In this document: one piece after another, positions 50,450 through 57,800 of the stretch
Layout of the letters: every line of letters begins with the position of its first letter
Position numbering within the stretch: position 1 is the stretch's first letter
Assembly: GCA_002189035.1 (NCBI GenBank)
Contig: CM007990.1
Coordinates: 1,426,001 to 1,490,000 of the forward strand
Source of the DNA: Utricularia gibba
Lineage: Eukaryota; Streptophyta; Magnoliopsida; Lamiales; Lentibulariaceae
Reading direction: 5' to 3'
DNA length: 64,000 bases
The notes under the pieces: generated by a model
What the model saw: the letters and a program-made list of their open reading frames with translations, nothing else
Told to the model about the DNA's origin: nothing
Database searches by the model: none
Position numbers and translations under genes: made by a program

Positions 50450-53429
50450 TCATTCAATAAGTGATATGCAGAGAGCAACCGCGATTCCAAGAACGAAGGA
50501 CATTAACTCGATGATGGCGTTTCGCAGACTCGAAACAGTTGTGTTTATCTCTGCCAACACTCCAAGGGATATGTAGATGAAACCGCCAGCAGTGAGGCCC
50601 TGCCAGGATTTATCAGTAGGAAGAAGAAATAAGGTGCCTGATAATAGCAGCTGAACATATGAAAAAGCCTCACCTCTATAATGGATGATTGCCCCGGATC
50701 CTTTCCCCAGGTTAGAGCCTGCAAAATGATGCAGAAGAGCTTTAGTATGGATTTGAATCGAGTATGTGGCAAGTAGATGCAATAAAACTCAAGCTTCTTA
50801 TGTGGATGGGGGAATGCAGACCAATGCAGTTCCTGCTAATGCGACCAATGCAGACAGGAAGTTGAAGAACAGAGCTTTTGACGTGCTGAAACCAGATCTC
50901 ACGAGGATGCCAAAATCACCAATCTGCACAAGCAGCAGGATTCAGTCCAACTCAACTGTACAGTTGTTCAGACTCATTCCTTCGTGTCATGACATGAAAA
51001 TCATGTTCTCACAGACTAGCTAACTCATGCACAAGCATTGGGCAATTGCAAGAAGGCAAAGCCAAAAGTCATTGGCATAATCCACATAAAAAATGGATAC
51101 GACACTAAATGGAAGAAAAATGGGAGGAAGCTTGTCAAGGGGAATGGATACCTCTTGTGGTAGCTCGTGAGCGAGCAAAAACAGAGTTCTTGACCAACCA
51201 CCAATTGATCCATAGAGAAGGAAAGCACTACCCAACGCCATTCCATCAGTAAAATTATGCTGCAGCCAGACGTTTCAATGAAATGAAAAAAAAATTGAAA
51301 ACAGCATAAAGTACAACCAGGAGATGGAAAAATACTAGATACCGAAGACTTACAACTCCATCTGAGAAGAGGTTCAAGTAACCAAACACCAAATTTGACT
51401 GTGTTTGTACAGGCTCTGGTGTTTCTGCATGCTTAGTGTTATTAGATTCAGAGACATCACCAGGAGAGTCCGTTCTCTCAGGAGAAACACAATGAGGATT
51501 TCTCTGGATAAAATTCAAGTAAAATATAATGGCTTGTAATTGGCACATCAAACAAAATGATTCACACAGAAGATTACCAGTTTCTTACCGTACCTTTCGA
51601 AGCCCATCACTTTCACTTACAAGGTCACCGGTTGTTACAGTGTCTTTTAGATCATTACATGTTTTCCGATCAGAGGTCTCCTCAGATAAGCCTCTCTTTT
51701 CCTCTTCCCTTTCATGAGACAACCCTTTATTATATTCATGTGAATCCCCATCCCTCAACTTTTCCAGGTGTTTATGGTGGTGATGACGGTGGCCCAATGC
51801 ATTTTTTCCGGTAGAAGAATCTTCAATAAACCTCACGAGTTTCTCAACAATCAAGAAAAGCACAATCCCAGCTGCATGAAGAAGGACCATGATCACATTC
51901 ATCCATACAAAACCTTTGGGATTATTTAAAAAAATACATCCAAATAAGTTGCTTTCTGTTTTAAAACCATTTGAAAACCATGCACTGTAAATGCATGAGA
52001 GGCAATTGTTTAGCTCTTCGAGTATCTCCTAGTATTGCATGTTTACTCACCTAAGATGGACAGGCCAATAGAAAGCTCCTTTATGGAGTGTGAATGTGAC
52101 TGCCCGGAGTGCACATGATTATGATCATGCTCGCCATGGTGATCATGTGAATGTGAGTTTCCACCACCTTCAGAGAAGAAAACTGTTTCTTATTCGAAAG
52201 AAGAAAAAAACGTTAAAAAAAAACCACTAAAACTTCAAATCAGGGTATCCTCCTTTTGTTTTTCCAAACTAATTTTTTCAATCACCAAAGCTATTTATTC
52301 AATACCAAAAGCATGAGGCAACTGATGAAGGAAAGCATCACCCAGCATCGCTCCTGCCTGTATCATTGAATTCAAGAGAAAATCAGGATGGAAACTCAGC
52401 ATGAGTATGATCTGATACAAAGCCGCCACCATTCATTGGAACATCGAACTTATATTTAGAATTAACATAAAAATCTGCTTATTCGTCATGATATTTTTCT
52501 ACTATGGAAGAAAAATCCATCTTGCACCATGGCCAATCTCTTAGGGCATGCGTTTATCTTTAATTAGATACTAGACCTAATAATGACTAGAAAAAAACGG
52601 GCTATCTCCAATCGTATAGACAGCCATTTTAACAGGAAAGAAAACAATGAAGAGAAAGATATGAACAAACGCACCCCAAATAACGCCAACGCATCCACAA
52701 CCGTCTTTGATGGCTTCCCTTTGGCTGCACACAAAATACCGAGGCACATGTTTGTATATTAAAAGGTAAACATCCATTTTGTCGAGAGGACTAGAATGAA
52801 GTACTAGCATTTGCAAATTAGAGCTACTCACTGAATATTACAGGTAAGAAAATCAGGCAAACAAGTGAAGCCAAGCTAACCAATAGCGAGCAAGCGAGGG
52901 CGGCGATCCAAAGGTCTGCAAATGGTATAGAGTGTCAAGCATTAGACTGCCAAAAAATATAACTAAGAACTAAGTGGTGTTTAAGTCCTACAAGATCTAG
53001 CCAACTGGTCACTGACTTGAAAGCGCAATACTACAAATAGAGATCATTGATCGCCAAGCAACCGATTTCTAACCATGAAATAATTGTCGGAATAGACACA
53101 AAAACCAAAGAATAAGACTTACTAAACCCAGAAAGATCAACATATCCATCACGGATATGGTCATGAACTCCATGGCCATGGTCATGGTAATTATTCCACA
53201 TCATTTCCAAATCTTCTTCTTCAGCAATTTCCTCCGGAAGCAGCGGCTCTCGCTGTATTTTCTCATTCATGATCGGGGACTCATCATGATGCACATGATG
53301 AATATGGTTGTGGTGGTGTCCGTGGCTACACTGGTGGGCTAAAGCCATTCTAAGCCACAATCCAGAAACGGTCATAGTACACAATAAGTAGAAGTAGATC
53401 CGCTGCTGCCCTCTAGAAATCCCACCCAT
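50450..53429 (-). CDS. IAR1: ZIP-family zinc transporter IAR1 (IAA-alanine resistance 1)
   Basis: Eleven exons on the minus strand: 53429-53123, 52915-52832, 52724-52675, 52357-52306, 52167-52051, 51871-51594, 51503-51354, 51259-51152, 50923-50822, 50718-50674, 50599-50450. They close to 480 aa, as expected for IAR1. There is a hydrophobic signal-like N-terminus, then a luminal His-rich stretch (HQCSHGHHHNHIHHVHH). LWIAALACSLLVSLASLVCLIF forms the first membrane helix. HQLPHAFG opens a second His-rich loop (SHSHDHHGEHDHNHVHSG) and a third (HRHHHHKH). ZIP metal-site helices carry HNFTDG and HELPQE. Family members (with animal KE4/ZIP7) export zinc from the ER or Golgi. Arabidopsis iar1 mutants resist IAA-amino-acid conjugates. 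An alternative longer N-terminus is possible (see the upstream ORF). Confidence 0.94.
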
Positions 53430-53503
53430 TTTCTTCCAAAGAAACAATCTTTGTTTCCGAACTAGAAAATAAAATCAGGAATTCGAAGTGGGTTTTAAGG
53501 AGT

Positions 53504-54500: not shown

Positions 54501-55719
54501 ATTAAAAAAATATAGAAATACATAATAAAATTCGAGTTTTGTAGTAAAAATATAAATACTTAAAAATATGTGTTATCAATAAATTTCTAATATATTAGGT
54601 TGATGATGAAATATAAATTTTTAAAATATGTATTATCTTTAAACACTCAAAAAAATATGTATTATTAAAATCTCCCTAATATATTAAATTGATGATGAAA
54701 TACAAATTTTCTATGTACCAATAAAGTTGGTACGATCGATTGATGCAAAAAACATTGTATTTAAATTTGATGTCTTCTTAATATAGTGGACTCAATGTGG
54801 AATTCAAATTCATTGACTTACAACAAAGTCAATCAAAACTCTACATTTATACATTCATTATATGTGTGGATGACATTGACATATACTTTAAACATTCAAA
54901 AAATATGCGTTATCAATAATTCCTTAATATATTGGATTGATGGTGAAATGCAAATTCTCTATATGCCAATAAAGTTGGTAAAATTGGTTGATGTAAAACA
55001 CATTGTATTTAAATTTGAGAAAAAGCAATATAAATAATATTGTTCACTAAAATCATTATATTAATAATGTTATGCAATACTAGTAGTGGCGCTTTGGTGT
55101 GCGTAATGAATGGCACCATCAATGATAGAGCCTTAGATAAAGTACTATACGTGATAATATTTTAGATCTGTCAAACCATATTTCTTATTTTATATATATC
55201 TCATATCTCCACAATTTTTTTCATTCATCTTCAAAGTTGAGTAGAATCGAAGTTGAAGAAAATTTTAGTAATATCTTTTTTTTCATTTTATATTTTTATT
55301 TATTTAATTTTTTTATATTTCATAATAATTATACAATAATTGATTACATATATTTGTTTTACCATTTCAAAATATATAAATACACTAGCAATTTTTTTAA
55401 TTTTTTGGGAATGTCATCCGATTTGCCCTACAATGAGGGTGAAAATTCGCATACTCCTTCATGACCTTGCACCAATATGCCAAATGTCAATTATAGAGAT
55501 AATTATTTTATTACATATGCTAACACTTATCCATTTTTTTATATTTGTAATAATTGATTGTATTGTAGGTGTATCTTCGAGTTTTTAATTATCATTATAT
55601 TTAAATCATGATAACAATCCAAGTGTGAACGTGACTGAAGGATTCCTCATAGAAGTTAATTTTAGTGAGATTAAGTCTTAATATATGAAATTATTATCAT
55701 TATTTTTTTAAAGATACGG

Positions 55720-56572
55720 TCGACCTTGGTGATAATGGTGGAGACACCGACTTGAGTGAGTATTCTAAAGCCCTGCCAACAAATGTTTGTGAGGACGAAG
55801 CACCAAACACCGGAATTGAGGCACCTCGTGCAGTACAATTTCCCGGATCTCGTTCTCGACGATTCTCTCGGGTGTTTCGTGAGGGAGGAATACCCTCTAT
55901 CCAAAACAATCCGGTAAACACTTTCGTATCGGAGGAATTTAAATATGGTGGCAAATATAGATGATACGATAAGAAGGTACATGTGTTGAATAAGGGAATC
56001 GCATTTGCTAGTAAAGTTCATTCCTAATATTGTGTTGCCTAGCCCACTATCATATAAAATGAGGATATGAATTCATCGTTCTTGTTAGTCAACCCACATT
56101 TTGGGAGGACAAATATGCTCGTGCTAACATGGATCCTAAGTATTATTGGCGCATAAGGATTATGCGATCTACACGTGATGGAGTTTGGCAAATATCGATC
56201 TTTGACTTTCCACATACATGCATGGCATATATGGATGGAGCGCAACATCGCAACCTTTCTGATTTATTCATTGGATATGAACTTATGCATACTGCATATA
56301 GAGAATGAGGTATAGTTTAAATATTTCTTAATTTTTTTTAATAGTTTATATTTTTAATAATTTTTCTTTGTTGTAGAGATTAAGGTTGCAGATACTCGAA
56401 AATGTATTTTTGAAAAATATCAAAAGAAGATTACTTATGAATGTGCATGGTACGATGCTCAACTTACTTTTGAGTCAGTCTATGGAACATGTGAATCATT
56501 AGTACAAAAGCTACATGCATTATTTCTGGCAATCACGCAAGCCAATCCGGGTACAATGGTCTTGTGGGACTG
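55720..56572 (+). pseudogene. MuDR/MULE transposase relic
   Basis: Pieces of a MuDR-type transposase N-terminal region in two frames with several stops. First comes an acidic linker (LSEYSKALPTNVCEDEAPN, about 55752-55960). Then GIAFASKVHS and AHYHIK-stop-GYEFIVLVSQPTF lead into YYWRIRIMRSTRDGVWQI and FDFPHTC, the MuDR DNA-binding/zinc-finger pattern (W-R-I then HTC). After an interruption (56284-56375) comes KKITYECAWYDAQLTFESVYG ending NPGTMVLWD, the usual lead-in to the MULE catalytic domain. The DDE catalytic core is missing. Homology is by pattern recognition, not search. Confidence 0.75.
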
Positions 56573-56965
56573 AAGGCCAGTCATAATGAATTGTGCATTT
56601 TGTGCGAGTGCAAACCATTGGTATACCATTAATACGAAAACCCCATAGCATAGAAACATCTTGGAGATTGATCGTGGCCTCTCCACATGATAAGAAGAAG
56701 TTGTGCATCTCTGGACGCCATCTCTCTACTAAAGTTGTAAGTAAATTCAGGTTTGGTTACATTCGTAATGTCTTAAGAACTCTATAAAAACCCCAATCAT
56801 CGAGATATCTCGCAGTTCTCTCCTCCCATGATTTGTCTACGAAGAATTTGTAGCTGTGTTTAACTTACATCATTATTTAGTCTGATCCATATAATAAATC
56901 ATAAGTAATGTGTTGCTGCTGCATATCCAACAGGCTCGGATCCTCATAACCATGAACTCTTAAAC
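56570..56965 (-). pseudogene. Plant Mobile Domain (PMD; MAIN/PP7-long-form-like) relic
   Basis: Minus-strand coding remnant. It reads VHGYEDPSLLDMQQQHITYD, then YLDDWGFYRVLKTLRM, a stop, then LTTLVERWRPEMHNFFLSCG, EATINLQDVSMLWGFRING and IPMVC. The ALVERWRPETH-F-LP-GE-TITLQDV pattern is the hallmark of the plant mobile domain found in MAIN/MAIL1 and in transposons. Only the N-terminal third is present. At least three in-frame stops and a frame change mark it as dead. It lies tail-to-tail with the transposase relic inside the same terminal repeats. Confidence 0.75.
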
Positions 56966-57433
56966 GTGAATATATGTCAATTTATAAAAAAAACATTACA
57001 TATTTAATAAGAAATAATATAATAAATTAAATATATTAGTCAATAATAAAAACATATTATTCATAAAAAAAATCTTACATCAATGTACAAAAAAATTAAA
57101 AACAAATTGATAAATATCATATATATAATAAAAAAACTATGACAAATTAATAAACAAAATAATTAATAAAACAATAAAAAAAGTAAATAATAACTTTATT
57201 GTTTACTGTAATCAAAAAATTAAAATGTTAAAATTTACTAATATAAAAAAATATATAAAAATTTAATAATCTCACCCCTGTAATCAAAATGTTTTTTTAT
57301 TACAATTTTACACTTGTAAGATATGAAGAATGATGAAGGTATTTATAAGAAGAATATAATAAGAGTACGAGTGAGCATGTCATAGGGAATGAGAGGGGAG
57401 CATGGGCTTGCTGACATTGGGAGCACCTGCAAG

Positions 57434-57589
57434 ATGCCATCATTGATGGTGCTACACAGTAAGGCGACATCAATGATGGTGCCATGCTGTGTGAACTCCG
57501 AGGCATCATCACTAATGGTGTTCTTTAGCATACACTTTTTAAGCATTATCGTTGGTGGCGTGTATTTTTAAAGTACCATCAATGATAAC
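57434..57589. repeat. Subterminal repeats of the MULE (GGCACCATCAATGATG type)
   Basis: Related copies lie at 57436-57452, 57466-57483 and 57573-57589 near the right end, with a weaker one near 57499-57519. A matching copy GGCACCATCAATGAT is at 55112-55126 near the left end. Orientation alternates. Subterminal repeats of this kind are often transposase-binding sites; that role is inferred. Confidence 0.6.
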
Positions 57590-57800
57590 GTGATAGACAA
57601 AGCGCTATTACTAATTGCGTATACTATTATTAATATATTGTATTTATTAATCAATATTTATTTATGTTAATTTTTCTTTAAATTTGATATCTTCTTAATA
57701 TAGTGGAATCAATGTGGAATTCAAATCTATTGAATTACAACAAAGTCAATCAAAACTTAACATTTCTACATTCATTATATGTGTGGATGTTATTGACTTT

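What the first reader, a model, noticed from the sequence alone, without database searches (positions are those of the whole stretch)
55720..56965. One element carrying a transposase (+) and a Plant Mobile Domain gene (-) tail-to-tail
PMD proteins (MAIN, MAIL1) act in silencing and genome stability and are thought to have moved between hosts and transposons. Here a PMD remnant sits inside the same terminal repeats as a MuDR-type transposase, arranged tail-to-tail. That suggests a MULE lineage that carries PMD as cargo or accessory gene, possibly to counter host silencing. Intact relatives would be worth finding.
Basis: partly seen in the sequence, partly recalled or inferred. Interest (0 to 1): 0.6.

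Follow-up and report, generated by a model that had tools for sequence, protein, structure and literature searches.

The report
Mutator-like transposon carrying a PMD gene
The window holds a shrunken copy of a plant Mutator-like jumping gene whose longer relatives carry, tail-to-tail with the transposase, a second gene related to the plant silencing proteins MAIN/MAIL1; the pairing is real and old, but this kind of element has already been described.

Summary
Window 55019-57676 is one Mutator-like element (MULE): 78-79 bp terminal inverted repeats, a perfect 11-bp target-site duplication, and an empty-site paralogue next door. It is an internally deleted 2.66-kb copy of a ~5.7-kb family. It keeps the start of a transposase gene (+) and the start of a Plant Mobile Domain (PMD) gene (-). 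In long copies the two genes run tail-to-tail (~140 bp between ends in L018).

The pairing is not a chance nesting. Of 19 copies of this transposase in the assembly, 16 have a convergent PMD; the other 3 are deleted or truncated. A second, deeply diverged family repeats it in 6 copies. Transposases with PMD form one clade apart from 22 sampled PMD-less MULEs, and the PMD tree agrees. Between two sub-lineages the PMD is under purifying selection (omega ~0.30), nearly as strong as the transposase (~0.25). It is thus a maintained gene of the element.

No copy examined has both genes undamaged, and what the PMD does was not tested. New member of a known kind.

The parts
55008..55018 (.). Left target-site duplication, TTTAAATTTGA
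   Evidence: Perfect 11-bp match to the right copy
55019..55096 (+). 5' (transposase-side) terminal inverted repeat, 78 bp, begins GAAAAAGCAATATAAATAATATTG
   Evidence: 78% identical to the 3' arm; 96% identical to the family TIR query; the same TIR ends other family copies
55115..55131 (.). Subterminal CCATCANTGATGG-type palindrome, candidate transposase-binding site (more copies near the 3' end: about 57437-57580)
   Evidence: 1 copy near the 5' end and 4 within 240 bp of the 3' end, none inside; about 0.1 expected; function inferred
56072..56218 (+). Transposase, 5' exon (presumed N-terminal DNA-binding region), remnant
   Evidence: 82% aa identity to the family transposase exon
56400..56585 (+). 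Transposase, second exon, start of the Mutator transposase core; ends at the deletion junction
   Evidence: 80% aa identity over 61 aa, E 1.5e-23
56572..56591 (.). Internal-deletion junction: about 3.06 kb of the ~5.7-kb element missing here (transposase catalytic core and SWIM end, PMD 3' half)
   Evidence: Alignment to L019: element bases 1-1554 match L019 3-1597, bases 1573-2658 match L019 4662-5724
56577..56969 (-). PMD gene, 5' part (Pfam core 56604-56783), remnant with 3 in-frame stops
   Evidence: PF10536 57.9 bits; 73% aa identity to the family PMD over residues 3-138, E 4.3e-60
57598..57676 (-). 3' (PMD-side) terminal inverted repeat, 79 bp
57677..57687 (.). Right target-site duplication, TTTAAATTTGA
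54650..54880 (.). Tandemly repeated AT-rich unit that acts as a paralogous empty site (one TTTAAATTTGA, no element)
   Evidence: Joined flanks of the element align to it over 231 bp, 87%, no gaps

Best explanation
The feature is a non-autonomous, internally deleted copy of a MuDR-type MULE family. Full-length members (~5.7 kb) encode a Mutator transposase with MULE core and SWIM finger on one strand and, convergently, a separate PMD gene related to MAIN/MAIL proteins, in the slot that mudrB fills in maize MuDR. Shown: one mobile unit (TIR, TSD, empty site); conserved convergent pairing across two diverged families; congruent transposase and PMD trees; purifying selection on the PMD comparable to that on the transposase. 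Inferred: the PMD was taken up once before families A and B split and kept because it helps the element spread. My preferred mechanism, inferred only, is that the element PMD enters or competes with the host MAIN/MAIL1/PP7L silencing complex and relieves transcriptional repression of the element (about 0.45 of the probability among functions). A MURB-like helper role in transposition is the main alternative. The confidence below is for the anatomy and the maintained accessory gene, not for the anti-silencing step.
For: PMD and transposase homology in the window. TIR, 11-bp TSD, empty-site paralogue; perfect 11-bp TSDs also in L019 and L022 and a 10-bp one in L020. The TIR query returns 25 places, most at the ends of known family members. 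16 of 19 family-A transposases have a convergent PMD downstream; the PMD-less copies L061-L063 are deleted or truncated. Family B repeats the layout in 6 copies at 39-49% transposase identity. All PMD-linked transposases form one clade, 100/99 support, apart from 22 PMD-less MULEs. PMD tree: A+B together, 98/98, apart from 3 presumed genic PMDs, with the same B1/B2 split as the transposase. B1 vs B2 omega 0.30 for PMD and 0.25 for transposase; shifted-frame controls 1.7-2.0. MAIN/MAIL1 act in TE silencing in Arabidopsis (PMC5418596, PMC7156037).
Against: Within young family A, omega corrected for mutation context is near neutral for both genes (PMD 0.87, transposase 0.92), so selection shows only over deeper splits. 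No examined copy has both genes free of stops. No expression, methylation or protein data. A+B PMD monophyly rests on long branches and only three presumed genic PMDs. The anti-silencing step is untested; rice Abermu elements that lack the opposite-strand ORF may still move (PMC9168764).
Confidence: 0.88

Rival explanations
1. The PMD protein is a transposition helper in the mudrB position (integration, transposase complex or localisation), with no role in silencing.
For: Same convergent position as mudrB in MuDR, which is needed for insertion in maize (literature cited); co-selection with the transposase.
Against: PMD has no known link to strand transfer; its characterised relatives act in silencing and gene expression.
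Confidence: 0.25
2. Neutral passenger: a host PMD fragment captured Pack-MULE style and carried without function.
For: MULEs capture gene pieces; all copies seen are decayed; near-neutral omega among young A copies.
Against: The PMD persists, alignable and in frame, across a split in which third codon positions are close to chance; omega about 0.30 between B sub-lineages with opposite behaviour in shifted frames; convergent layout in 22 copies.
Confidence: 0.05
3. Chance nested insertion: a PMD-bearing element (for example Ty3/gypsy) landed in a MULE.
For: Gypsy elements also carry PMD in plants.
Against: The same layout recurs in many independent insertions, with PMD inside the MULE TIRs and TSDs.
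Confidence: 0.01
4. PMD was captured independently by families A and B from different host genes, both times in convergent position.
For: Two independent PMD-C captures by MULEs have been inferred in angiosperms (PMC5418596); A and B PMDs are only 30-38% identical, about as far apart as the A PMD is from presumed genic PMDs.
Against: A+B monophyly in both trees and identical layout.
Confidence: 0.2

Closest known systems
MUDR group (group 50), MUDRAVI2 (49) and related plant MULE groups of Dupeyron et al. 2019 (PMC6446971)
   Same: MULE transposase with SWIM finger, TIRs, and 'PMD in antisense for most of them'
   Different: The present family could not be placed in a numbered group (no Repbase sequences here); TSD of 11 bp against the listed 9-10 bp
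PMD-C/MULE fusion elements of grasses and Amborella (Ikeda et al. 2017, PMC5418596); rice MULE-PMD of Babu et al. 2006 (cited there)
   Same: PMD carried by a MULE; anti-silencing idea
   Different: There PMD is described as fused to the transposase; here it is a separate gene on the opposite strand
Maize MuDR (mudrA/mudrB)
   Same: Two convergent genes inside long TIRs
   Different: mudrB is not reported as a PMD gene; no sequence comparison was made here
Abermu family, ORFR (PMC9168764)
   Same: Opposite-strand second ORF between the transposase and the 3' TIR; omega below 1 reported
   Different: ORFR is not described as PMD in that paper
VANDAL21/Hiun with VANC
   Same: A MULE carrying an accessory gene; proposed model for anti-silencing
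   Different: VANC is not described as a PMD protein; VANDALs have no or short, degenerate TIRs, here 78-86 bp

Membership tests
Mutator-like elements (MULE superfamily) | MULE (DDE-type) transposase core | tested here: met
   PF10551 over cut-off in long family copies, e.g. C213:3315124, C4:2699466, C507:266588; deleted in the window copy, whose remaining 61 aa are 80% identical to the same protein
Mutator-like elements (MULE superfamily) | Terminal inverted repeats | tested here: met
   78/79 bp in the window, 86 bp at 92% in L019, also L020 and L032
Mutator-like elements (MULE superfamily) | Target-site duplication of about 9-11 bp | tested here: met
   11 bp perfect in window, L019, L022; 10 bp in L020; none recognised in L032
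Mutator-like elements (MULE superfamily) | SWIM zinc finger near the transposase C-terminus | tested here: met
   CSCGKWTKYGVPCSH in L018 and L019, read by eye; deleted in the window copy
MuDR-type two-gene element | Second gene convergent with the transposase, inside the same TIRs | tested here: met
   16 of 19 family-A copies and 6 family-B copies; the window keeps 5' parts of both. TIRs were defined for family A only
MUDR group 50 (Dupeyron) | Phylogenetic placement with maize MuDR | not testable with these tools
   No reference MURA or Repbase sequences held
Plant mobile domain family (PF10536) | Match above curated cut-off | tested here: met
   Window 57.9 bits; L018 ORF 120 bits; cut-off 34.9
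PMD-C clade (MAIN/MAIL) | Placement among PMD-A/B/C reference sequences | tested here: inconclusive
   Family A is closest to the presumed MAIL2-like locus C480 (36-37% aa), but A+B fall outside the three presumed genic PMDs and no reference PMD-A/B/C set was available
Pack-MULE | Lacks transposase, carries host gene fragments | tested here: not met
   Long copies encode both transposase and PMD
VANDAL | Absent or short, degenerate TIRs and a VANC gene | tested here: not met
   Long TIRs present; the second gene is PMD; VANC itself was not searched for

The most novel reading that the evidence does not exclude
An element-encoded PMD has been co-inherited with a MULE transposase as a selected anti-silencing gene that works by subverting the host MAIN/MAIL1/PP7L pathway: a second, PMD-based kind of transposon counter-defence beside VANC, of which the host silencing proteins and the element proteins are branches of one arms race.
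Probability: 0.3. Interest if true: 0.75.

Novelty: new member of a known kind. Interest (0 to 1): 0.33.

Why it matters
MAIN and MAIL1 silence transposons by an unexplained route. Transposons that keep their own copy of the same domain under selection are the natural material for finding out what the domain does and whether elements use it against their host. This genome supplies two diverged lineages in which the pairing, the layout and the selection can all be measured.

Tried and rejected
(1) Pfam on the window's + fragment alone gave nothing, so homology had to go through family copies. (2) Pairwise dN/dS among family-A copies: the raw median for PMD (0.55) was matched by a shifted-frame control (0.58), so it was discarded; a mutation-context null gave about 0.87-0.92, near neutral, because most changes post-date insertion. 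Selection was then measured between family-B sub-lineages with frame controls. (3) TIRs of family B could not be defined because satellite-like AT repeats flank or invade the copies. (4) The host species was not identified: rbcS is about equally close to several angiosperm structures. (5) No PDB chain resembles the PMD; structure prediction was not run. (6) A chance nested insertion and a Pack-MULE fragment were considered and rejected. (7) Babu et al. 2006 is not held, so it is cited only through later papers.

Full report
Observation. A PF10536 (PMD) match lies at window 56604-56783 on the minus strand with 57.9 bits against a cut-off of 34.9. The plus-strand frames give no Pfam match by themselves, but window 56403-56585 is 80% identical to the transposase of a family found elsewhere in the same assembly (E 1.5e-23), and 56072-56218 is 82% identical to the exon before it.

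Element boundaries. The window element runs from 55019 to 57676 (2,658 bp). Its arms are 78 and 79 bp and 78% identical. It is flanked by the perfect 11-bp duplication TTTAAATTTGA (55008-55018, 57677-57687). When the flanks are joined they align over 231 bp without a gap to the neighbouring repeat unit 54650-54880 (87%), which has a single TTTAAATTTGA: a paralogous empty site. Against the 5.7-kb copy L019, bases 1-1554 match L019 3-1597 and bases 1573-2658 match L019 4662-5724, so about 3.06 kb of the middle is missing. The window copy keeps the 5' part of both genes and cannot be autonomous.

Full-length relatives. Copies L017-L022, L024 and L032 align to L019 over most of their length, at 80-91%. 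L019 and L022 have perfect 11-bp duplications and L020 a 10-bp one. The plus strand encodes a Mutator transposase (PF10551; SWIM-type CSCGKWTKYGVPCSH by eye). The minus strand encodes a PMD protein (L018 ORF 120 bits). In L018 the two open frames end about 140 bp apart, at 2741 and 2883: tail-to-tail. A 78-base TIR query returns 25 places, most of them at ends of known members; the transposase-side arms are mostly 91-97% identical to the query and the PMD-side arms mostly 78-82% (L019's is 95%).

Is the pairing conserved? Among transposase copies at 60% identity or more to the query (lower bounds, since not all candidates were scored), I count 19 loci, the window included (C414:547k is counted for its best stretch of 71%). 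Sixteen have a PMD downstream on the opposite strand, one of them 8 kb away. The exceptions, L061, L062 and L063, are copies with the PMD region deleted or the element truncated. A second family, B, at 39-49% transposase identity, repeats the convergent layout in six copies (L023, L025, L026, L027, L064, L065). A few dozen PMD loci in 100 Mb make this far beyond chance.

Descent. A maximum-likelihood tree of 44 transposase cores puts all A and B copies in one clade (100/99), apart from 22 MULEs with no PMD hit nearby. In the PMD tree A and B are again together (98/98), apart from three presumed genic PMDs, and family B shows the same two sub-lineages as in the transposase tree. Caveats: long branches, midpoint rooting of the transposase tree, few genic PMDs, and a PMD-less sample chosen by similarity to family A.

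Selection. Among family-A copies, raw dN/dS is matched by a shifted-frame control for the PMD, and a null that respects mutation context gives 0.87 (PMD) and 0.92 (transposase): mostly decay after insertion. Between the two B sub-lineages the same kind of measure gives a median of 0.30 for PMD (12 pairs, not independent, 0.18-0.38) and 0.25 for the transposase, with 1.7-2.0 in the shifted frames. Between A and B, PMD second codon positions are 58-68% identical while third positions are 36-40% against 29-30% by chance. The PMD was thus a protein-coding gene under constraint while it travelled with the transposase.

Mechanism. Shown: one transposable unit with two convergent genes, co-inherited and both constrained. 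Inferred: the PMD protein helps the element. [quoted passage not shown]). An element-encoded paralogue that joins or titrates that complex would relieve repression; this has been suggested in print and remains untested. A MURB-like helper role is the main alternative.

Comparison with the known. Dupeyron et al. 2019 list PMD in several plant MULE groups, 'in antisense for most' of the MUDR group and 'often antisense' in MUDRAVI2 (PMC6446971). Ikeda et al. describe PMD-MULE fusions captured twice. Abermu elements carry an opposite-strand ORF in the same slot. The present element is therefore a new member of a known kind. What this work adds is the boundary proof, the within-genome conservation count, tree congruence, a selection measurement with frame controls, and candidate subterminal binding sites.

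Limits. The assembly held is 100 Mb in 516 contigs with unknown completeness; the species was not identified; no expression or methylation data; no copy examined had both genes free of damage.

Noticed in passing
window 55115-55131 and about 57437-57580; L019, L020, L022, L021, L032 ends: A palindromic motif, CCATCANTGATGG, recurs about 70-240 bp from the ends of family-A elements (2 to 7 copies per element) and is nearly absent inside; candidate subterminal transposase-binding sites.
   Followed up: partly
G000 family-A copies: The transposase-side TIR is much more uniform among copies (mostly 91-97% to one query) than the PMD-side TIR (mostly 78-82%), so the two ends are evolving unequally or come from different sub-lineages.
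   Followed up: no
L061 (C142:676527-680256), L030 (C2:3145k), C213:2470165-2471350: Other internal-deletion derivatives: L061 lost the PMD gene, L030 lost most of the transposase, and the C213 locus has a family TIR close to a PMD 5' end, resembling the window copy.
   Followed up: partly
window 54562-55018: AT-rich local repeat units (spacings 89 and 248 bp) next to the element; the element sits inside one unit.
   Followed up: yes
window 51585-53474 (-): A gene with a weak ZIP-like exon (PF02535, 20 bits, below cut-off) and histidine-rich stretches has its apparent 5' end about 1.5 kb from the element, so the MULE lies upstream of a gene.
   Followed up: no
C496:538500-542500 (L069): A very divergent PMD with a long open frame, far from the other PMDs in the tree (branch 2.3); nature unknown.
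   Followed up: no
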